This document shows positions 1 to 12,986 of a stretch of 24,991 nt of DNA, piece by piece. The DNA comes from a virus. A model generated the notes under the pieces. It was not told where the DNA came from, made no database searches, and worked only from the letters and a program-made list of their open reading frames with translations. Both the position numbers and the translations under genes were made by a program. The stretch lies in the IMG/VR virus record IMGVR_UViG_3300025647_004194, positions 1 through 24,991 of that record; one strand, written 5' to 3'. Every line of letters begins with the position of its first letter. The stretch's first letter is position 1.

Positions 1-710
1 ACGTCGGCCTGGGCGTCCAGGTTGCCGCCCTGGGTTGCCGCAGCGCCCACGCGCGCTGCCTTGCCGGCCTTGTACATCGTGCCCGTGTTGGTCCAGTACC
101 AGCCGGCGAAGTAGCCACGAGAGGCCATCAGCGCCGCCGTGTTGGACACCAGCAGGTAGAGCCCGGCGTTGCCACCGATCGCCGCCGCCGCGTCCGGTGT
201 CGAGCACGTCATCGAGACGCGGATGCCCACCGCGCCCGCGGGCTTGTCGGTGAGCTGCTTGGTGGCCGCGTAGGCGTCCACGCCGCTATCGGGCCGACCA
301 TGGACAGCCGCCACCTCGATCCGGTTGGTGGTGCCCAGCGAGGTGTTCCCGCCCTTCTGGCCGGTGTTGCTCTCGGTGGCCCCGGTGAGGTCGAGCGTCA
401 GCGCTGGCGGGATCTTGATGGCTACCGAGTCCACCGCATCGGAGTCTGCGTCCAGCGTGATGGTCGCCACGTAGGTCACGCCAGCCACCACCGGCGTAAA
501 GGTCGGGCCAGCAACGGTTGCGTTGCTCAGCAGGTCGGTGCTGTCCGTCGTCGTGCCGTCGCTGTTGAGGCGCGAGAGCGTCCACGCGATTGTCGAGTAG
601 CCAGAAGACGAGGAGCCATCGAGCGTGACCAGCCCGAGGGTCGACGCGATCTGATCCGAGCCCGCATGAGCAATCGGGCCACCGCCACTGGGCTGAACCT
701 TCTGGCGCAT
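1..710 (-). CDS. Virion-associated protein with PKD/Ig-like domain (partial, 3' end outside window)
   Basis: The reading frame stays open from an ATG at 710 to the window edge, giving at least 236 residues, so the C-terminus is missing. GGAG lies about six bases before the ATG, inside the end of the upstream gene, whose stop is at 714-716. Residues about 17-85 resemble a PKD/Ig-like beta-sandwich: VTLDGSSSSGYSTIAWTL is followed by a run ending in GVTYVATITLDADSD. The rest is rich in Gly, Ala, Thr and Ser, with an aromatic patch (GYFAGWYW) near residue 205, typical of fibrous or adhesive virion proteins. It is last in the tail operon, after the tail hub-like gene, so a role in the tail tip, a fibre or a decoration is inferred. 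I recognise no specific family. Confidence 0.75.
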   Translation of the reverse strand, partial: MRQKVQPSGGGPIAHAGSDQIASTLGLVTLDGSSSSGYSTIAWTLSRLNSDGTTTDSTDLLSNATVAGPTFTPVVAGVTYVATITLDADSDAVDSVAIKIPPALTLDLTGATESNTGQKGGNTSLGTTNRIEVAAVHGRPDSGVDAYAATKQLTDKPAGAVGIRVSMTCSTPDAAAAIGGNAGLYLLVSNTAALMASRGYFAGWYWTNTGTMYKAGKAARVGAAATQGGNLDAQAD

Positions 711-713
711 GGC

Positions 714-1046
714 CTACTCCTGGACCAGTTCGACGGACACCGTGCCCGCCTGAGCCGCCACGAACACGCTGGTGATTCGCTTGGCCGGATCCGGGTAGAG
801 ATCGACCTCGATGCCGTTGGTGACCTGGGCGGCAGTCCAGGAGGAGCGGACCGCCCCGACGGCGCCACCATCCGCCGCGCCATCCTCGCTGGAGGCGTAG
901 TAGATGGCGCCATCCGCCTTGACGGTCACCCGCCTGGACTTGATGAGCGTGTTGAGCTTGAACTCCTGCCAGGTGGTGCCGACGCTGGTGTCGACCGCCG
1001 TGGCCCAAAGCTTGGTGGCGTCGAACAGGTCCGTGTTGGTGGCCAT
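714..1046 (-). CDS. Small virion-associated protein, function unknown
   Basis: The product has 110 residues and a clear Shine-Dalgarno (GAGGAG) about five bases before the ATG at 1046. It looks soluble and beta-rich, with no signal peptide or membrane segment. Two stretches suggest a compact beta-sandwich: TWQEFKLNTLIKSRRVTVKA in the middle and ITSVFVAAQAGTVSVELVQE at the end. Its stop is three bases before the start of the next gene, and its last codons carry that gene's ribosome site, so the two are probably translated together. A plus-strand lipoprotein gene separates it from the rest of the tail operon, so it may need its own promoter (see 1084-1093). A small tail or fibre-associated structural protein is the likeliest role. 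This is inferred from position only. Confidence 0.7.
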   Translation of the reverse strand: MATNTDLFDATKLWATAVDTSVGTTWQEFKLNTLIKSRRVTVKADGAIYYASSEDGAADGGAVGAVRSSWTAAQVTNGIEVDLYPDPAKRITSVFVAAQAGTVSVELVQE

Positions 1047-1083
1047 GGAAACTCCTCAAGTAGGGCAGCGCTGAGACGATGAG

Positions 1084-1093
1084 AGGATAACCT
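1084..1093 (-). promoter_or_regulatory. Candidate promoter element before the gene at 1046
   Basis: On the minus strand this reads AGGTTATCCT, containing a TATCCT -10-like hexamer. The eight bases ATAGGTTA (1088-1095) are identical to bases 21040-21047 before the portal gene. The site lies in the gap created by the plus-strand lipoprotein gene, where the downstream minus-strand genes would need a fresh start of transcription. No good -35 box is visible. Confidence 0.25.
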
Positions 1094-1130
1094 ATGAGCA
1101 GGCGTGCTGATACGCCGTCCAGGAGCCACC

Positions 1131-1424
1131 ATGTTGATCGCGCTTTTGTCAAGCCTTACGGGCTGTCGCGAGTCCATCGCCGACGACAACCTCACCCCCG
1201 CCGTCGAGGTCTACGGCTACCGCGAGAAGGCGACTTGTGGACCGCAGCACGACAGCATCGAGATCGACCTCGGCGCGGATGATGTCTGGGCTACTCAGGT
1301 GCGCGTGTGTCGAGACGGGTGCCTGACGAACCATTCCCGCTGGACCCTCTCAGCGCCCGGCGTGGTTGAGGTGGAGTGTCTCAGCGAAGAGACCGTCGAG
1401 GTCACTTGGCTCAGCGCTGGCTGA
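1131..1424 (+). CDS. Small secreted lipoprotein, moron-like; possible superinfection exclusion factor
   Basis: This gene opposes the surrounding operon. From the ATG at 1131, which has AGGAG five bases upstream, the product is 97 residues. It begins with a short hydrophobic stretch ending in the lipobox LTGC, so Cys12 would be lipidated and the protein anchored in a membrane facing outward. An in-frame GTG at 1104 would add nine residues including two arginines, giving a textbook lipoprotein signal, but its ribosome site is weak. Four more cysteines follow, enough for two disulfides, which fits an exported protein. The residue after the lipidated Cys is Arg, not the Asp that retains lipoproteins in the inner membrane of enteric bacteria. 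Small phage lipoproteins encoded near tail-tip genes, such as T5 Llp, block re-infection. That role is inferred; an outer spanin or a host-surface modifier are alternatives. A 5-bp-stem hairpin lies at 1101-1116. The stop is three bases from the convergent hub gene, with no clear terminator. Confidence 0.72.
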   Translation: MLIALLSSLTGCRESIADDNLTPAVEVYGYREKATCGPQHDSIEIDLGADDVWATQVRVCRDGCLTNHSRWTLSAPGVVEVECLSEETVEVTWLSAG

Positions 1425-1427
1425 GGG

Positions 1428-2960
1428 TCAGCGGCGAGAGTTAGGCGTCCTGTCGATCAGGTCGACAGCCACCGTTGCCGCTGCCTCTCCATACTGGATG
1501 GACCGGATCACTGCCTTGTGGTCCGAGATGCCCCATGTATCGGTATTCAGAAGGAAGACCATCCCGGCCCTGAGCAGCGGCAAGACATCAGGCACAGCGT
1601 AGAAGGTCAACTGTCGGCGCTGAAGTGCGAGCCTGGATGCTCGAGCGCGAAGCAGCCCGTAGGCTGTACCTGAGTCATGTACGGCCGTCGTCTTCAGCGG
1701 CTTTTCTGCCCTGACCTTGTTGCCCCCGAGTTGATAGGCCAGCAGGCAAAGGGCATCGTTCGTGTGATCGATGGTGGCCGAACCATCATACGCTCCCGAT
1801 TGCATGTTGTAGTCGTAGAGGAGAGAGAAGCTCGTGTAGGTGGCGTCCGCGTCCGAAAAGGTCATCGGCCCAACTCGGTGCAGTTCCTGCCCCTCGGTCA
1901 GGGTGCATTCAGGCTCTCGAACATGAGGATCGCTGTAGGCGAAGTACAGCCCCTCAGAGCCCATGACCTCCACAATCGGGAAGACCGGTGCCAGCCGCTG
2001 GCGAATGAGATCCAGCGCCCCGACCTCTTCGTCAACCCAGAACCCGCACTGAAAACGGTCCAGGCGCTTGAGGGTGGGCTGCATGGCATCCCAATCCACC
2101 TTCTCCCCAGAGTCCTGAAGGAGGCGGGCAAGAACACCCGAGGCCCTAAGTGCAGGCTTGGAGAAGTCGTTGTAAGCCCTCGTACCGCCGCGAGTAGCGT
2201 CCCAGGTGTAGCCGCCGTTCGCGGCCCTGTAGACGGTTCCTGACGAGACGTAGGAGTAGGATCCGCCCGTGTTGCTGTCCGTAAACGGGTTGGCGACCAC
2301 GGGCCCACCATCGTCCTCGTAGACTGAGATCGAGCCAAGGTCTGGCAGGAGGTGGCCGCACAGCACCAAGCGGTCTGAGCCAGACACGGCGCCTACCTTG
2401 TAGGCAGGGACCCGCTTGGCGTCCCCGTAGACGAACACCCGCTTACGCCCCACAAGGCTGGAGATCGCGCCGGCCACGGTATCTGTCAGCGGGTCGGCCC
2501 AGACATCGCCCATGTCGATGGTATCGCCGCCTACATTGGCACCCGCCACACTGCCGAGCCCCTCGAGCACCAGCACGGTGAGTTCGCCCACCTTGCCCAT
2601 CTGGAGGTTCTGGATGCGCCCATCAGCCAGCAGGATGCGCCGCTGTTCGTAGCCCGTTGTGTCCCCCATCATGATGGCAAGCTCGCCCTTTCCTGATGCT
2701 ACCGCGCGCCAGTCTGCCGCCTTCACAGCAAGGTCTTCGGAGGTCAGGACCGATACCTGGGCCTGCTGAAAACTGGCTGAGGAGTCCAAGGAAAACAGGT
2801 CCACCTCCTCGCCATAGACCGGGTCCGAGGTGAGGATGGCGTCGAAGGCATAGACCTGCCCCGATGCGCTGGTCAGGGTCGTGGGACGCGTGGCCGCCCG
2901 GATCACCGTCCCATCAGGGAGGCTGACGGTGAGCAGCCATACCAGTGGGGTGCCAGCCAC
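1428..2960 (-). CDS. Tail hub / tail-tip baseplate-like protein
   Basis: The 510-residue product starts with GTG at 2960, with GAGGAG about eight bases upstream and only two bases after the preceding stop. The N-terminal 130 residues are beta-rich (LLTVSLPDGTVIRAATRP). A central region carries Gly/Ser/Tyr-rich loops. The C-terminal 90 residues (LTFYAVPDVLPLLRAGMVFL, then a strand-rich finish) resemble the barrel domain of tail hub proteins, in which a substrate-path or start-position phrase is followed by a short insertion phrase. It lies directly after the fibre-like gene and near the end of the tail operon, where siphophages encode hub and tip proteins. The family assignment rests on architecture and position rather than a diagnostic motif; a gene transfer agent-like baseplate component is an alternative description. 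It converges with the lipoprotein gene three bases away. Confidence 0.6.
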   Translation of the reverse strand: MAGTPLVWLLTVSLPDGTVIRAATRPTTLTSASGQVYAFDAILTSDPVYGEEVDLFSLDSSASFQQAQVSVLTSEDLAVKAADWRAVASGKGELAIMMGDTTGYEQRRILLADGRIQNLQMGKVGELTVLVLEGLGSVAGANVGGDTIDMGDVWADPLTDTVAGAISSLVGRKRVFVYGDAKRVPAYKVGAVSGSDRLVLCGHLLPDLGSISVYEDDGGPVVANPFTDSNTGGSYSYVSSGTVYRAANGGYTWDATRGGTRAYNDFSKPALRASGVLARLLQDSGEKVDWDAMQPTLKRLDRFQCGFWVDEEVGALDLIRQRLAPVFPIVEVMGSEGLYFAYSDPHVREPECTLTEGQELHRVGPMTFSDADATYTSFSLLYDYNMQSGAYDGSATIDHTNDALCLLAYQLGGNKVRAEKPLKTTAVHDSGTAYGLLRARASRLALQRRQLTFYAVPDVLPLLRAGMVFLLNTDTWGISDHKAVIRSIQYGEAAATVAVDLIDRTPNSRR

Positions 2961-2962
2961 GG

Positions 2963-5902
2963 TCAGAGCTCCTCGCTCAGGATGAGTTGGTCAATACGGG
3001 CCAGCCCGGTGCTGAGCTCACCGCGCTGGTTGGGTCGGGAAAGGGTCCCCTCGACCCGGACGAGCCTCAGGGTGTCGATATCCGAGGTGTCTCGCCAAAA
3101 GGCGATCGGAGTCTTCGACCCCTCGATGGCCGCGTAGAAGGCCGCGATCTTTGCTCCCTGCTGCCCGTGCCCGGAGTGCATCGCATTGATCGGGTCCCAC
3201 TGGATCAGGACCTGGTAGCGACGAGGACCAGTGCGGGAAGAGAAGCGATAGCCCGCCGTGCTCTCCTCAAGAGAGACGTTTGGCGCCGTCCGGTCCGAGA
3301 AGTTGTGGCTGTACGCGATGTCGGGCTCGTGGCCTTCTCCCCAGATAGGGGTTCCGATCCGCAGGTCTCCGTCAGCCGTGTCCTGGGCAGGGATGAGGAT
3401 GCTCGCGTAGCGGTAGCGCTGGGTGAGGCCCATGACCGCGCCAGCCCTGTCGCTGAAGATGTAGAAGGTGGAGGCAGGGACTCCGCTGAAGTCGACCCCC
3501 TCGACGTAGATCGTCTGCTGGTCGTTGTCCGTGATCTCGTATGTGTCGTCAGCCACGGTGATGAAGTAGCGGTGGGCGTCCCCGTCCGACCTGAACTGAC
3601 CCGGGATCCACGTCCCAGACGAGGGGCCGATGAAGCCCGGCCCTCGGTTGCCCGTGCTGGTGGTCCCCGTGGCGATCTGGGTGGTCATCGCCTGAGAGAC
3701 GGACGGTGCGCCCCATGAGTCGGTGGCGTTCATCTCGAACGTGATGGTGCGAGCGTTGGTGCCGAACATGGCGACGTGCTTGGCAGTGAAAACGTTGTTC
3801 ACTCCTGCGTCGAAGACCACCCTCAAGGCGGTTCCATCCGACGTGGATCGGAGCTGGCGAGAGGGCCGGAACTCGCGCCAGAGGTTCCGCTTGTCGTAGC
3901 TGTAGGCCGTCTGGAGCGTGTAGCTGTCTCCCGGCATCCCTGCACCGTTCATCCCAGCAAGGAGCAGGCCGTCCGTCAGGTACATGGGGTGTGCCGCCTG
4001 GAGAGGCCGACCCGTCAGGTCACCCGGGTTGGTGAACCCTGAAGCCATGCCAGTATCGTTGTCGCTGGTCTCGAGCAGAAGGATCTGCCAATTGACCGCG
4101 TACGAGCCGGCCTCGCCCCCAAAGGCGAGAATGTTCGACGCGCCCACGTCCTCGACCACGGTGGCACCATTGATCTGATTGGTCCAAAGTTGGTCGGCGT
4201 CTTGCTTGGTCCAAAGACTGATCTGGCCCTGGCCAGCGGTGGAGTCATGCTGGAAGGCGATCTTGATGTCCGTCCATTCCGTCATCGTCAGGGAGACAGA
4301 ACCCAGGGAGTTCCCAGGCCCATCCGTCACCTCGAAGCCGGTGGTGTCGAACTTGCACTGGACGAACTGCTGGTTCACTCCATCCGTGATGGCGAACTTC
4401 AGCTTGGAGCAGTGGAGGGTCTTGCTGCCGCCCGTGTTCACCCGAAGACGGAAGCGGAGACGACGTGAATCTCCGGCCGAAGGGTTCCAGAAGGTTGCCG
4501 GCGCGCTGTAGAGGGTGTTGTCCGCCGCTGTTCCGATCAGCCGGAGCGTCTGCTGGTTCGTGATCGTAGCGCCGGCTCCGAGCGTTGCAGCGGTCCAGCC
4601 GAGGGCGTCAGGATAGTCGACGGGAACGTAGGTGTGGCCGTAGGGCTTGGCATCCGAGCGGACGACCTCACTGGTGTTGTCGTACTCGCCGAAGATCAGG
4701 GCCAGGACGTTGTGGTCGGAGCCCGTGTCAGCCTGGGTGGTGACCAGCATGACGCACTGCTCGTGCCACGAACCCACGACCATGGAGGCGAACGCGTTGG
4801 CGGTGGGAGTGTCGCCGAGGTCAAACACGGCATCCGAGTCGATGAGCGTGAAGGTGGCGCCATCGTCCACGGAGACAGCGATCTCCATGTTGGCCGCATT
4901 CGATGCCGTCGTGTTGAAGCCCCAGACGAAGATGGTCCCATCGTCCCGGCAGCAGATGGCCTGGATGCCGTCGTAGTCCCCGACCTGGCCCTGGACCGTC
5001 TCACCGAACCCACCGCCCGGGATGATCTCCGTGACCTCGGCGTTGACGGTGCCCTTGGTGACCATCAGGACCCTTCCGGTCTTCGTCACGCAGGTCTGGG
5101 GGTTGGGCCCCGTCTTCGTTGCGTGGGTCCCCGTCAAAACGAAGTTGACTCCACCATCGTAGGAGGTCCAGACCTCAAGCTTGTCTCCGGTCCCGTGGTG
5201 GTCGATCACCGCCACGAGGACATCGCCCACCACCTCGAGGGAGGCGTTGTTGTGCCCGTAGGAAGTGTCACCCACCAGGGCGTTAGTGGAGAGGAGGGCC
5301 CAGGTGACTCCCAGGTCATCCGAGTACCAGGTGTCCCACTGGTGGCCGATGTTCCCTGCCACGAGGGCGATCAGCCGACCCGTCGCCAGGACGGCCAGCC
5401 CGTACTGGTCGCGGAGAAAGTCAGACGAGGCACCCGTCGTGGTCTCCGTCAGGACACCCGCGTTGTCGATGCGGTTGAACTTGCAGACCGAGCCGGTTCC
5501 CTGGATGAGGAAGCCTAAGCTCCCGTCGGAGAGCTGGCGGGGGACCGAGCACGTCCGACGGTTCGCCACGTAAGCGGAGACGGGGCTGGTGACACGGGCC
5601 AGGACGGGCGTGTCGGTGAACCCTCGGTACTCCGTGGAGGCATCCGAGGTGTTCTTCCACAGCTGGGCGGCCCCAGACCCCGCAGGGTGGGAGACGCTCG
5701 GGCCCGTGGGGTTGCCTCCCGACTGAAGCAGGATGTCAGCATCCACCGCAGCCAGGGGCTCGCCCGCAGGACGGAGCCGAAGCACACCCTTGTTGGCGGT
5801 GGCCGGGGTGGCCGGCTGGGTGGTCAGGCCAGCCTCGGACGTGGAGCTCAGCACGTTGGCCGGAACGTGGAGGTGGTCAGGACGGAGGAAGATGGTGGCC
5901 AT
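2963..5902 (-). CDS. Large tail fibre / adhesin with Asp-box (BNR) repeats and lectin-like domain
   Basis: The product has 979 residues and its ATG overlaps the tape measure stop (TGATG). After a leader of about 100 residues, three Asp-box motifs of the sialidase-type beta-propeller appear: SDDLGVTW near 194, SYDGGVNF near 247 and SVDDGATF near 344. Residues about 430-615 look like a LamG/concanavalin-type jelly roll (SRRLRFRLRVN, WTDIKIAF, QGQISLWTK). The last 120 residues (YRFSSRTGPRRYQVLIQWDP onward) resemble a distal tail protein-type domain that could anchor the chain to the tail tip. The layout suggests a receptor-binding fibre that recognises or trims a surface glycan. Asp-boxes are structural, so they do not by themselves show enzyme activity, and I see no convincing sialidase active site. 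The position between tape measure and hub supports a tail-tip location. Confidence 0.7.
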   Translation of the reverse strand: MATIFLRPDHLHVPANVLSSTSEAGLTTQPATPATANKGVLRLRPAGEPLAAVDADILLQSGGNPTGPSVSHPAGSGAAQLWKNTSDASTEYRGFTDTPVLARVTSPVSAYVANRRTCSVPRQLSDGSLGFLIQGTGSVCKFNRIDNAGVLTETTTGASSDFLRDQYGLAVLATGRLIALVAGNIGHQWDTWYSDDLGVTWALLSTNALVGDTSYGHNNASLEVVGDVLVAVIDHHGTGDKLEVWTSYDGGVNFVLTGTHATKTGPNPQTCVTKTGRVLMVTKGTVNAEVTEIIPGGGFGETVQGQVGDYDGIQAICCRDDGTIFVWGFNTTASNAANMEIAVSVDDGATFTLIDSDAVFDLGDTPTANAFASMVVGSWHEQCVMLVTTQADTGSDHNVLALIFGEYDNTSEVVRSDAKPYGHTYVPVDYPDALGWTAATLGAGATITNQQTLRLIGTAADNTLYSAPATFWNPSAGDSRRLRFRLRVNTGGSKTLHCSKLKFAITDGVNQQFVQCKFDTTGFEVTDGPGNSLGSVSLTMTEWTDIKIAFQHDSTAGQGQISLWTKQDADQLWTNQINGATVVEDVGASNILAFGGEAGSYAVNWQILLLETSDNDTGMASGFTNPGDLTGRPLQAAHPMYLTDGLLLAGMNGAGMPGDSYTLQTAYSYDKRNLWREFRPSRQLRSTSDGTALRVVFDAGVNNVFTAKHVAMFGTNARTITFEMNATDSWGAPSVSQAMTTQIATGTTSTGNRGPGFIGPSSGTWIPGQFRSDGDAHRYFITVADDTYEITDNDQQTIYVEGVDFSGVPASTFYIFSDRAGAVMGLTQRYRYASILIPAQDTADGDLRIGTPIWGEGHEPDIAYSHNFSDRTAPNVSLEESTAGYRFSSRTGPRRYQVLIQWDPINAMHSGHGQQGAKIAAFYAAIEGSKTPIAFWRDTSDIDTLRLVRVEGTLSRPNQRGELSTGLARIDQLILSEEL

Positions 5903-8118
5903 CAGGAAAGCACTCCGAGGCCAGACATGCCCACTTCGGGGCCGCCTTGCCGGTTTGCACGCACGGTGGCGACGATCTGGCCCCCACTACGCAGGTCGGT
6001 TCGGATGATCTCGCGGGCCTCAAGACGGCCGATCTGCAAGGAGACCCTGCTCGAGGAGCCTCCCCCACCATCGCCCCCGGCCTGAAGGTCTCGGATGCCC
6101 TCGGCGCCCAGCCGCTCCGTGGTCGACCGATCCAGCACCGCCTCGCCTGGCAGCAGGTCAGCGGTCACGATGCCGCCCTGGTGAAACGTGGGCTGCTGAC
6201 GGGCCACGATGCCCGCCTGTACGGCGCCGAGGATGCCGATACCGACGCCAGCGATAGCGCCAGCAATCGGGCCCAACTGAGCGACGGCCTGCGTGATGGC
6301 CACCGCCGTGTTGACCGTGATCTGGAGGAGGGCGGCGATCTTGTTGGCGATGAAGGCCTCACGCGCGGCCTTCTTCTCAGCCTTGATGCGCTCGCGGAGC
6401 ACCTTCTTCTCCTCGCTCAGTCGCTCCCGCTCAGCCTTGATGGCCTGCTTCTTCTCCTCGCGACTGAGATCCGTGCGCTCATTGATGTCCGCGCGGAACT
6501 GAGACATGCCCTCTTCAGCGAGCCGGTCGAGCTCCATCTGCAAGGCCTCAGCGTTGGCGAGGCGCTCGTCCTGGGCGGCCTGCGCCAGCATGGAGATCGC
6601 CGCCAGCGTGTCCTGCGCTGCCGAGATGGTCGCCGTCTGGAAGTCCGCGTTCCGCTGTGCAGCCTCCTCCTGAGCCAGCATCTCGGCCTCTCGACGGGCG
6701 TCGATGTTGGCCTGGTTGGCCTCACGGATGAGCTTGAGGTCCTCGAGCATCCGGTCGAGCTCTTCCTGGGCGGCCTTCTCGCTCTCCTCGGCCGCCTTGG
6801 CCTCAAGGGCAGCCTGCTCCTCGGTGAACTGCCGCAGGGCCGCAGCGCGGGCGGCGTCGGCCTGCTGAACGTCGCCGGTCCTCGCCTCGAGTTCGTCGAT
6901 GAGCTCGAGCTGCTTCTCCAACTCCTGCACGATCTGCTTGTGCGGGTCGCTGGTCTTGTCGATGATGTCCTGGAGTTTCTCAGCGGCTGCCGCCTGGTCC
7001 TTGAGGGCCTTTTCCTGCTCGCGGATGGCCTTCTCAGCGTCGGCCTTCTTGAACTCCTTTCTGACGGCCTTGACCCCCTCGGCAACCTCGGACAGCGTGT
7101 CCAACTCATCGCCAGCGGCATCGATCTCGGCTGCGAATCCAGCCATGGCGTCCGCGTCATCTTCCAGCGCCGAAGCCAGGGTGACCGCCGCCTTGCGGGC
7201 TTCCTCGATCTGGCCCAGGCCGGTGAACTGGCCGAACGCCTTGGTGATACCCGTCACCTCCTTGGAGGCCTCAGCCAGCGTCACAATGAGCTGAGACATC
7301 AGGCTGATTGTCTCAGCCACCTCGGGCGTTAGGCCTGCACCGAAGGCGAGTGTTGCCTGGTCCGTAGCGATCTTGAGGTCCTGCATCGCCAGGTCCATCT
7401 CGGCAGAGGCGCCCTGGGCGTTGTCGAAGGCGGCCGAGAGTTCCGCGGTACGAATGCGTCCCTCGGTGAGGGCTTCGCTGCTGTTGCCCAGCGCCGCCGC
7501 GATCTCAGAACCGCGAGCTCCGAACAGCGCCGCCGCCGCCGCCGCCTGCTCCGTCTCGCTGTCCAGGTTGCCGATAGCGTCGAGCGTGTCCGCGAGGATG
7601 GCGTCCATGTCGCGCAGGTTGCCGCTGCTGTCCTCGATGGAGATCCCGAAGTCCTCGAAGACCTTGGCCGAAGCGCCGCCCAGACGATGAGCCTCACCCG
7701 CCCGCAGCACGAAGGCAGCGAGCCCGGCTTCCATCTGCTCGAGGCCCGAGCCGCCACGGCTGGCCGCATCACCGAGAGCAAGCAGCGTCTCCTGGGAGAG
7801 GCCCACCCTTCGGCTCAGGATGTTCATGTCGTCGACCATGACGCTGGCAGCGTTGGCCAGCTCAAACGTCGCCTTGGCAGCCACAGCCACAGCAGCAGCC
7901 AGCGCCGAGCCTGCCGCCGCCGTCTTCTTCATGGCGTCAGCCGCAGCCTTGGACTCCTTCGCTACGTCCCGGGTCTCCTTCTCCTGCTTGTCGAGTTCCT
8001 TCGCAGTCTCGCGCGAGGACTTGCCGAGATCCGCAGTGGCCTTCTGGGCGCGCTCTACACCCTTCTCAAGGTCGGTGGTGTCCGCGGTGTAGCTGATCTT
8101 TACTTCTTGGTCGGCCAT
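5902..8118 (-). CDS. Tape measure protein
   Basis: The product has 738 residues and is the third longest chain in the window. Translation in this frame could extend back to 8400, but that stretch overlaps a real gene and reads like noise. The ATG at 8118 overlaps the upstream stop (TGATG) and gives the proper-looking start MADQEVKISYTADTTDLEKG. Residues 80-250 contain the Ala-rich LSRRVGLSQETLLALGDAAS section seen in many tape measures. A long charged coiled coil covers about 330-610. A hydrophobic helix pair follows (IAALLQITVNTAVAITQAVA, then GAIAGVGIGILGAV), and the end carries FHQGGIV and LPGEAVLDRSTTERLG, typical of this family. The protein sets tail length and passes through the tail during DNA ejection. 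At roughly 0.15 nm per residue, the family rule, the tail would be near 110 nm. Confidence 0.93.
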   Translation of the reverse strand: MADQEVKISYTADTTDLEKGVERAQKATADLGKSSRETAKELDKQEKETRDVAKESKAAADAMKKTAAAGSALAAAVAVAAKATFELANAASVMVDDMNILSRRVGLSQETLLALGDAASRGGSGLEQMEAGLAAFVLRAGEAHRLGGASAKVFEDFGISIEDSSGNLRDMDAILADTLDAIGNLDSETEQAAAAAALFGARGSEIAAALGNSSEALTEGRIRTAELSAAFDNAQGASAEMDLAMQDLKIATDQATLAFGAGLTPEVAETISLMSQLIVTLAEASKEVTGITKAFGQFTGLGQIEEARKAAVTLASALEDDADAMAGFAAEIDAAGDELDTLSEVAEGVKAVRKEFKKADAEKAIREQEKALKDQAAAAEKLQDIIDKTSDPHKQIVQELEKQLELIDELEARTGDVQQADAARAAALRQFTEEQAALEAKAAEESEKAAQEELDRMLEDLKLIREANQANIDARREAEMLAQEEAAQRNADFQTATISAAQDTLAAISMLAQAAQDERLANAEALQMELDRLAEEGMSQFRADINERTDLSREEKKQAIKAERERLSEEKKVLRERIKAEKKAAREAFIANKIAALLQITVNTAVAITQAVAQLGPIAGAIAGVGIGILGAVQAGIVARQQPTFHQGGIVTADLLPGEAVLDRSTTERLGAEGIRDLQAGGDGGGGSSSRVSLQIGRLEAREIIRTDLRSGGQIVATVRANRQGGPEVGMSGLGVLS

Positions 8119-8588
8119 CAGATCTCCAGGTCCAGCGTCTCGGTGCCGGTGTCGCCGTCTCGGATCGGCCGACTGGGGCCAGGCTTGGTCAGGCCGTTCA
8201 TGATCTCGCGGGTCAACTCCGCGACGAACTGAGGAAGCAGCTGCCTGTTCACATGGTCGGTGAGGCGCTGCACCTCGCGCGGGGAGTTCTTGCTCCTGCG
8301 GACGTAGCCCACGTAGGGCTTGCCGCTGCGCCAGCCTCGCGCCTCGTTGAGGATGGTGATGCGCGGGCCTCTCATCGTGCTGTCGATGCGCTCCGTCCAC
8401 GCATCGTAGGAGACCAGCCGAGGGGCGTCAGCCGGTCGGCCCTCGTACTTCCAGCCCACCCACGGGTTCTGAAAGCCCTCACGGAAGCGCCTCGCCCACT
8501 TCTTGAGCACAGCCCGCTCAGCCTGAGACAGCCTGCGACCGAGCGTCTTGGTGCTGGGCGTGGTGGTGGTGATCTTCACGTCAGCCAT
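8118..8588 (-). CDS. HK97 gp10-like tail/connector protein, copy 2
   Basis: The 156-residue protein overlaps its upstream neighbour by eight bases (ATGGCTGA) and the tape measure gene by one. Its middle (ITILNEARGWRSGKPYVGYV) matches the pattern of HK97 gp10-type proteins, in which a beta hairpin with Gly-rich turns ends near a Tyr-Val-basic stretch. It is a diverged paralogue of the gene at 8581-9033: both have an early LSQAER/LTLAER helix followed by VLKKWA/VLRRWA, and both end in a long C-terminal helix preceded by QLLPQFV/RLIPQI. The usual family position is the head-tail connector region; here both copies sit just before the tape measure, which is unusual. A minor tail or tail-completion role is inferred. 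Confidence 0.65.
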   Translation of the reverse strand: MADVKITTTTPSTKTLGRRLSQAERAVLKKWARRFREGFQNPWVGWKYEGRPADAPRLVSYDAWTERIDSTMRGPRITILNEARGWRSGKPYVGYVRRSKNSPREVQRLTDHVNRQLLPQFVAELTREIMNGLTKPGPSRPIRDGDTGTETLDLEI

Positions 8589-10714: not shown

Positions 10715-10903
10715 ATGCTCAGCATCGCCGACATCATCGAGGCCGTCGATTCCTACACTGGCGGGCGCTTCGCCGTCGTCCTCACAAGCACGGAGGACGA
10801 GTGTGCGGCTGGCGATCTCATCGAACCAGAAACAGGCGCCATTGCAGGAGCATGGTCACTGGAGATGCACGGCTACGCTGCGCCCTACATCTCCTGGGCC
10901 TGA
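10715..10903 (+). CDS. Small acidic protein of the plus-strand cassette, function unknown
   Basis: The 62-residue product begins at an ATG with GGGAG seven bases upstream. It is acidic (ADIIEAVDSYTGGRF, then STEDECAAGDLIEPETG) and ends in an aromatic stretch (MHGYAAPYISWA), with no signal peptide or membrane segment. A consensus-like promoter precedes it and the ribbon-helix-helix gene follows one base after its stop, so the two form a single transcription unit. A moron product, an anti-host effector or a partner of the DNA-binding protein are possible. The acidic small protein plus ribbon-helix-helix layout recalls toxin-antitoxin operons, but no toxin fold can be recognised, so that is only a possibility. 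Confidence 0.65.
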   Translation: MLSIADIIEAVDSYTGGRFAVVLTSTEDECAAGDLIEPETGAIAGAWSLEMHGYAAPYISWA

Positions 10904-10904
10904 C

Positions 10905-11063
10905 ATGACACCCAAGCGAGGCCGCCCTCCCAAGGCCACCGAGGACCTTCAGACCGTCCGCGTCACTGTCCGCCTGACCAAGGCGCAGGCGGTGGAGTTG
11001 GACCGGCAACGTGGCAAGGTGAGCCGGTCAGCGTGGCTGGCTCGACCGTTGAGGGAGGAGTGA
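10905..11063 (+). CDS. AT-hook/ribbon-helix-helix DNA-binding protein
   Basis: The start is the ATG at 10905, one base after the previous stop, consistent with coupled translation; a longer in-frame start at 10803 lies inside the upstream gene. The 52-residue protein has an AT-hook-like KRGRPPK near residues 4-10. A complete ribbon-helix-helix fold of the CopG/Arc type follows: strand VRVTVRLT, helix KAQAVELDRQR, turn GKVS and a second helix RSAWLARPL. Such proteins bind DNA as dimers, usually to operators near their own gene. It may therefore regulate the cassette or the divergent tail operon start. The pairing of a minor-groove hook with this fold in so short a chain is noteworthy. A strong hairpin terminator follows. 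Confidence 0.75.
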   Translation: MTPKRGRPPKATEDLQTVRVTVRLTKAQAVELDRQRGKVSRSAWLARPLREE

Positions 11064-12189: not shown

Positions 12190-12229
12190 GGTACACCTCC
12201 CGCACAAGCTGTGCGATGCTCGCCGCCGT

Positions 12230-12237
12230 GTTACACT
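12230..12237 (+). promoter_or_regulatory. Candidate -10 element for a leaderless HNH transcript
   Basis: GTTACACT sits five bases before the ATG at 12243, sharing eight bases with the elements at 10588 and 21036 in the opposite orientation. A -10 box so near the start codon would make a transcript starting at or beside the ATG. No ribosome site is present there, which fits. The -35 region is poor. Confidence 0.35.
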
Positions 12238-12242
12238 TAGGC

Positions 12243-12986
12243 ATGGGTCAGAACTTCTGTAGCTTCAAGGGATGCGGGCGCGCTGCGTCCACAAAGGGGC
12301 TGTGCCGCAGTCACTACAAGCAGCAGTGGCAGGGCAAGGATCTCAAGCCGCTCAAGCCGTACAGGCCGAACGTCGGGAAGGTATGCACCTTCCCTGGGTG
12401 TGGCCTTGGCGCCACCTGCAAGGGCCTGTGTCAGGGCCACTACGTGCAGCATAGGCGAGGGCAGGTCATGCGTCCCCTGCGGGACAGTGGGACCAATACC
12501 GTTGTCGGGGCCGACTGCGCATCGGTGGAGTTGAGCCTGACCAACCGTCACGGAATGCCGGTGGCGATCTGCGTCATCGACCTCGCCGACCTTGGCCGGG
12601 TCCGTGCGCTGGGACGAATCCACCGCGATGGCAACGGGTACGCACGAGTGGGCGATGTCCAGTTGGGGCGCATCCTTCTTGGCATCGAGGACAGTGCCCT
12701 GTACTGCGACCACATCGACGGCGACCGCCTCAACAACCGTCGCAGCAACTTGCGCGCCGTCACCCCGGCCGAGAATGCCCAGAACGTCGCCCGGCCTGGT
12801 CGTGAGCGCGCACGCGGAGTCTCGCGCAGGTCCCGTGGCGGACGACGGCCCTACCAAGTGGACGTGATGGTCAATGGTGTTTCGCACTACGGCGGCGTCT
12901 TCGCCACCGAGGACGAGGCCGTTGAACGAGCCCGAGCCCTGCGGGCCGAACTCATGACTCACGCCAACGAGGACCGTCATCAGTAG
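12243..12986 (+). CDS. HNH homing endonuclease with two zinc knuckles and AP2 domain
   Basis: The 247-residue protein opposes the operon. I choose ATG 12243 over 12216 because the protein MGQNFCSFKGCGR begins just before the first zinc knuckle. Two knuckles share the spacing C-x4-C-x9-C-x2-H, at residues 6-24 and 48-66. The HNH nuclease motif follows near 155-172 (CDHIDGDRLNNRRSNLR, His157, Asn165, Asn169). Residues about 192-235 form an AP2-type DNA-binding domain (YQVDVMVNGVSHYGGVF). Such free-standing enzymes nick or cut sites in phage lacking the gene and spread by copying. Its insertion between the tail terminator-like gene and the tail tube-region genes fits a mobile element; the target would be the unoccupied junction. 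Two hairpins follow its stop. Confidence 0.85.
   Translation: MGQNFCSFKGCGRAASTKGLCRSHYKQQWQGKDLKPLKPYRPNVGKVCTFPGCGLGATCKGLCQGHYVQHRRGQVMRPLRDSGTNTVVGADCASVELSLTNRHGMPVAICVIDLADLGRVRALGRIHRDGNGYARVGDVQLGRILLGIEDSALYCDHIDGDRLNNRRSNLRAVTPAENAQNVARPGRERARGVSRRSRGGRRPYQVDVMVNGVSHYGGVFATEDEAVERARALRAELMTHANEDRHQ

What the first reader, a model, noticed from the sequence alone, without database searches (positions are those of the whole stretch)
1104..1424. Opposing lipoprotein gene next to the tail-tip genes
A 97-residue (or 106 with GTG 1104) lipoprotein with a clear LTGC lipobox and four extra cysteines is read against the tail operon beside fibre and hub genes. The position resembles phage T5 Llp, a small lipoprotein that masks the receptor. 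A new superinfection-exclusion lipoprotein paired with the adhesin at 2963-5902 is a reasonable hypothesis.
Basis: partly seen in the sequence, partly recalled or inferred. Interest (0 to 1): 0.62.

Follow-up and report, generated by a model that had tools for sequence, protein, structure and literature searches.

The report
Orphan lipoprotein gene beside phage tail-tip
A small phage gene of unknown ancestry, read against its neighbours in the tail-tip region, probably makes a membrane-anchored lipoprotein; its position copies that of known phage lipoproteins that close an infected cell to further phages, but its sequence matches none of them and its function is untested.

Summary
The ORF is there as described (+ strand, ATG 1131 to TGA 1424, 97 aa) and is very probably a gene. 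It is the only coding-like frame in a 381-bp gap of a tightly packed minus-strand tail operon, follows the phage's synonymous codon bias (P=0.0002 against base composition) and has an AGGAG site 5 nt before ATG 1131. Lipidation is likely but not secure. The best-supported start gives an 11-residue signal without any K/R. GTG 1104 gives a textbook signal (R4 R5, Cys21) but has poor ribosome-site and codon support. No homologue was found in Pfam, NCBIfam, PHROGs, PADLOC, PDB, IMG/VR, GTDB contigs or phage genomes. In T5, llp is divergent from oad by 79 bp; here the gene is divergent from minor-tail gene 714-1046 by 84 bp and convergent with the hub, not next to the adhesin. Sequence membership in the Llp/Cor/Rtp45 group failed. 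Best guess: an unrelated-sequence superinfection-exclusion lipoprotein (about 0.4). Host and lysis genes are unknown, and no relative covers the locus.

The parts
1131..1424 (+). Small probable lipoprotein gene, 97 aa, preferred start ATG 1131
   Evidence: coding frame; ribosome site; no homologue
1104..1130 (+). Alternative N-terminal extension (GTG start, MLIRRPGAT), which would supply a charged signal n-region
   Evidence: non-coding codon score; weak ribosome site
1121..1125 (+). AGGAG ribosome-binding site, 5 nt before ATG 1131
   Evidence: sequence
1131..1166 (+). Signal peptide and lipobox MLIALLSSLTG|C (acylated Cys12 predicted)
   Evidence: inference
1047..1130 (.). 84-bp divergent intergenic region between the lipoprotein gene and gene 714-1046; no sigma-70-like promoter match found
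1409..1424 (+). CTCAGCGCTGGCTGAG hairpin at the end of the gene, within a stretch (1380-1500) that folds better than shuffles (z -2.8); no U-tract, possible terminator of the convergent pair
714..1046 (-). Tail-operon gene, 110 aa, divergent neighbour; candidate minor tail or receptor-binding gene by position
   Evidence: no family match
3..710 (-). Following gene, runs off the contig, Ig/PKD-like composition; candidate fibre or receptor-binding gene by position
   Evidence: no family match; inference
1428..2960 (-). Putative tail hub, 510 aa, convergent neighbour
   Evidence: position after tape measure and adhesin; weak local match to the gene in the same position in L008 (E 0.001); no family match
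2963..5902 (-). Putative adhesin with sub-threshold BNR/Asp-box signal, 979 aa; C-terminal third matches the L008 protein
5902..8280 (-). Tape measure protein
   Evidence: phrog_8125 E 4e-16; PF10145 above cutoff

Best explanation
A real phage gene encoding a small exported lipoprotein that works like the superinfection-exclusion lipoproteins Llp, Cor and Rtp45. Transcribed on its own against the tail operon, it would be exported, acylated at the Cys of LTGC, folded with up to two disulfides, and carried to the outer membrane (+2 residue Arg, not the Asp retention signal of E. coli). There it would bind the host's phage receptor from the periplasmic side and stop the phage's own receptor-binding protein from docking, sparing progeny virions from infected cells and debris. 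Shown: the ORF, its codon bias, ribosome site, lipobox, cysteines, orientation and tail-tip neighbourhood. Inferred: export, lipidation, disulfides, receptor, exclusion.
For: Coding. Lipobox and cysteines; Cys enriched 9-fold over the phage's structural genes (5/97 against 37/6432, P=0.0003). Position: Rtp45 is read opposite J just after rtp44, the RBP; Llp is opposite to and divergent from oad with 79 bp between; T1 Cor is opposite the tail genes, after J and two small genes; here the gene is opposite the tail operon, 3 bp from the hub and 84 bp divergent from the next tail gene. Exclusion lipoproteins within the structural cluster, in several sequence types that tend to follow the receptor used, were shown experimentally in mEpimmI phages (PMC11893012). 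Llp and Rtp45 mechanisms: PMC9586334 and PMC12685063. No transmembrane segment after the signal and low proline argue against a spanin.
Against: No sequence similarity to Llp, Cor or Rtp45 beyond the lipobox (hhalign probability 4.7%). It is longer (97 against 75-77 aa) with two more cysteines. The start with translational support gives a short, uncharged signal. A lipobox-like pattern turns up in about 4% of other ORFs. The host, and whether it has an outer membrane, is unknown. The one distant relative with the same tape measure-adhesin-hub order (L008) has no opposing lipoprotein after its hub. No promoter found.
Confidence: 0.4

Rival explanations
1. A real lipoprotein moron with another role: it changes the host surface or envelope (as lambda Bor does for serum resistance) or blocks DNA entry of unrelated phages, and its place next to the tail-tip genes is just a tolerated insertion site.
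For: Single-gene insertion on the opposite strand with its own ribosome site. The phage carries other opposite-strand islands: the HNH gene 12216-12986, absent from that site in relative L004/L007, and small ORFs at 10715-11063.
Against: Tail-tip position and orientation match three exclusion lipoproteins. No match to Bor or any other lipoprotein family.
Confidence: 0.25
2. A real gene, but not a lipoprotein: a small cysteine-rich protein whose hydrophobic start resembles a signal by chance, for example a cytoplasmic anti-host or anti-defence protein.
For: Preferred start gives only 11 residues before Cys with no K/R. Loose lipobox matches are not rare in this GC-rich window. No PADLOC hit does not exclude anti-defence.
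Against: The hydrophobic stretch abuts LTGC exactly at the N-terminus. High cysteine content in a phage whose structural proteins hold few fits an oxidising compartment. No CxxC zinc-binding pairs.
Confidence: 0.2
3. Outer-membrane spanin subunit (Rz1-like) or unimolecular spanin used in lysis.
For: Small phage lipoprotein; lysis genes were not identified in the window, so the usual spanin is unaccounted for.
Against: No C-terminal transmembrane segment (excludes a u-spanin), only three prolines, four cysteines, no overlapping Rz-like partner with an N-terminal transmembrane segment nearby, and no spanin-family match.
Confidence: 0.05
4. Not a gene: an open stretch in a non-coding gap.
For: 13% of random 381-bp stretches hold a complete ORF this long; no homologue anywhere; codon score below the phage's average.
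Against: Synonymous codon bias (P=0.0002), AGGAG at the right distance, ORF fills the gap to within 3 bp of the hub stop, all other frames non-coding.
Confidence: 0.1

Closest known systems
Phage T5 Llp (superinfection-exclusion lipoprotein for FhuA)
   Same: Small lipoprotein; read opposite the tail and RBP genes; divergent from a tail gene with a similar spacing (79 bp in T5, 84 bp here); cysteines beyond the lipid one.
   Different: 77 aa, 15-residue KK signal, one disulfide; no sequence similarity. In T5 the divergent partner is the proven RBP; here it is an unidentified 110-aa gene.
Phage Rtp Rtp45 (exclusion lipoprotein for LptD)
   Same: Opposite strand to the J/hub gene, at the end of the tail module; disulfide-bearing small lipoprotein.
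   Different: 76 aa; co-directional with its RBP gene rtp44, which lies between it and J; no such RBP gene here; no sequence similarity.
Cor family (T1, N15, phi80)
   Same: Opposite-strand small lipoprotein after the tail fibre gene (T1).
   Different: 75 aa, KK signal, two extra cysteines; separated from J by two genes in T1; no sequence similarity.
mEpimmI Lpp exclusion lipoproteins
   Same: Lipoprotein genes inside the structural cluster, in several sequence types (PMC11893012).
   Different: Experimentally shown in E. coli; sequences not compared here.

Membership tests
Llp/Cor/Rtp45-type exclusion lipoproteins | Lipobox at a short N-terminal signal | tested here: met
   LTGC; loose lipobox pattern met from both starts; charge and Cys-position rules met only from GTG 1104
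Llp/Cor/Rtp45-type exclusion lipoproteins | Sequence similarity to Llp, Cor or Rtp45 | tested here: not met
   No match at E<=1 in the whole T5, T1 and Rtp records; hhalign probability 4.7%, lipobox only; blastp E 1.6 to Rtp45
Llp/Cor/Rtp45-type exclusion lipoproteins | Gene beside RBP or J/hub, opposite strand to the tail operon | tested here: met
   Window; references. A proven RBP is not identified in the window
Llp/Cor/Rtp45-type exclusion lipoproteins | Precursor of about 75-77 aa with one disulfide | tested here: not met
   97 aa with four extra cysteines
Llp/Cor/Rtp45-type exclusion lipoproteins | Blocks adsorption of the encoding phage by binding its receptor | not testable with these tools
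   Needs the host and an infection assay
Spanins (o-spanin or u-spanin) | Proline-rich lipoprotein with an i-spanin partner, or a C-terminal transmembrane segment | tested here: not met
   Three prolines, no transmembrane segment, no partner among the genes scanned; lysis region outside the window not seen
Lambda Bor (Pfam Lambda_Bor) | Profile match | tested here: not met
   No Pfam or NCBIfam match

The most novel reading that the evidence does not exclude
A new, sequence-unrelated family of superinfection-exclusion lipoproteins, with two disulfides, in a phage lineage without sequenced near kin that infects an undetermined non-enteric GC-rich host: independent recruitment of the same opposite-strand tail-tip position as in T5, T1 and Rtp.
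Probability: 0.3. Interest if true: 0.55.

Novelty: new member of a known kind. Interest (0 to 1): 0.36.

Why it matters
Exclusion lipoproteins with solved mechanisms come from coliphages. If unrelated lipoproteins keep appearing at the same place and orientation beside the tail-tip genes of uncultured phages, that position becomes a usable genomic marker for finding exclusion proteins, and through them phage receptors, where no host has been cultured.

Tried and rejected
Homologue searches of the lipoprotein in viral and GTDB contigs, phage genomes, Pfam, NCBIfam, PHROGs, PADLOC and PDB gave nothing usable. The Microbacterium phage hits (E 0.03-0.2) lie antisense to annotated genes and were rejected. 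The weak phrog_36014 hit (E 0.06) was rejected because the same model also rings in 8 of 14 unrelated control genomes. Relatives by terminase, capsid and tape measure all end before the locus. The adhesin search gave only L008 (28% identity) with no opposing lipoprotein. Hub and 714-1046 searches gave nothing. The terminase search of GTDB contigs for a host or prophage gave nothing. Structure models of the lipoprotein (mean pLDDT 45) and hub (32) are too poor for a fold search. Full-genome phages with a similar terminase or capsid are not syntenic.

Full report
What is there. The window is a 24,991-bp linear virus fragment whose minus strand carries a packed head-tail operon: terminase, portal, scaffold, capsid, tape measure, then a 979-aa putative adhesin, a 510-aa putative hub, and small genes 714-1046 and 3-710. 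Between hub and 714-1046 lies a 381-bp gap. On the plus strand this gap holds ATG 1131-1424, 97 codons, ending 3 bp from the hub stop.

Is it a gene? Of six frames in the gap only this one scores as coding. With amino acids held fixed, its codons fit the phage's usage far better than base composition (7.2 bits against -35 +/- 12, P=0.0002) and a little worse than typical phage genes. AGGAG stands 5 nt before the ATG, as in the adjoining tail genes. ORF length alone is weak evidence (13% by chance). I put the probability of a real gene near 0.9.

Is it a lipoprotein? MLIALLSSLTG|C has a clean lipobox but is only 11 residues long with no Lys or Arg; this fails the charge and Cys-position conditions commonly used with the lipobox rule (own knowledge of PROSITE PS51257). 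GTG 1104 gives MLIRRPGATMLIALLSSLTG|C, which meets them, but its nine extra codons look non-coding and its ribosome site is poor. Lipobox-like patterns occur in about 4% of other ORFs here. The five cysteines stand out against the phage's structural proteins (P=0.0003) but not against a random frame of this composition (P=0.14), so they support export only if the frame is coding. I put lipidation at about 0.7.

What it resembles. I fetched three characterised exclusion lipoproteins in their genomes. In Rtp, rtp45 and rtp44 are read against the J gene. In T5, llp is read opposite the tail genes, divergent from oad across 79 bp. In T1, cor is read opposite the tail genes, after J and two small genes. 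The window gene shares the orientation, is 3 bp from the hub stop and is divergent across 84 bp from the next tail gene. This is the main support for an exclusion role, and it points to 714-1046/3-710 or the hub, rather than the adhesin, as partner. Papers: Llp binds FhuA from the periplasmic side and folds extracellular loops inward (PMC9586334); Rtp45 binds LptDE at the periplasmic outer-membrane interface and shifts extracellular loops so that the RBP cannot bind (PMC12685063); mEpimmI phages carry several sequence types of exclusion lipoproteins within the structural cluster (PMC11893012).

Membership. By sequence it is not one of them: no match in the whole T5, T1 and Rtp records, only the lipobox aligns to their profile, and length and cysteine number differ. 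It may work like them; it is not shown to belong to them.

Comparative evidence. Three related contigs, two of them almost identical to the window, end before the locus. A distant phage fragment (L008) keeps the order tape measure, adhesin, hub but has no opposing lipoprotein after the hub. Hence conservation and co-variation could not be tested. The host is unknown: the closest terminases and capsids are about 25-28% identical to phages of Arthrobacter, Proteobacteria and spring-water phages, and no GTDB genome contig carries a relative of the terminase. If the host lacked an outer membrane the Llp-like mechanism would not apply.

Verdict. Probabilities: exclusion lipoprotein 0.4, other lipoprotein moron 0.25, non-lipoprotein gene 0.2, not a gene 0.1, spanin 0.05.

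Noticed in passing
L008:8378-10993: The distant adhesin relative appears to start at a TTG with a GGAGG site and carries KSVFITVITFLLISSC, a lipoprotein-like signal, ahead of the adhesin body.
   Followed up: partly
window 12216-12986 (+): HNH endonuclease gene read against the operon; absent from that site in the relative L004/L007, so probably a mobile insertion.
   Followed up: partly
window 10715-11063 (+): Second opposite-strand island: a 62-aa ORF and a ribbon-helix-helix-like ORF (RGRPPKATEDLQTVRVTVRLTKAQ...); part of the stretch is conserved in L007 (76% over 10914-11059).
   Followed up: no
window 1380-1500: The convergent junction of hub and lipoprotein genes folds more stably than shuffles (z -2.8); possibly a bidirectional terminator without U-tract.
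   Followed up: partly
L002:27-683: Another HNH-like homing endonuclease ORF near the end of the related contig, upstream of the replication genes.
   Followed up: no
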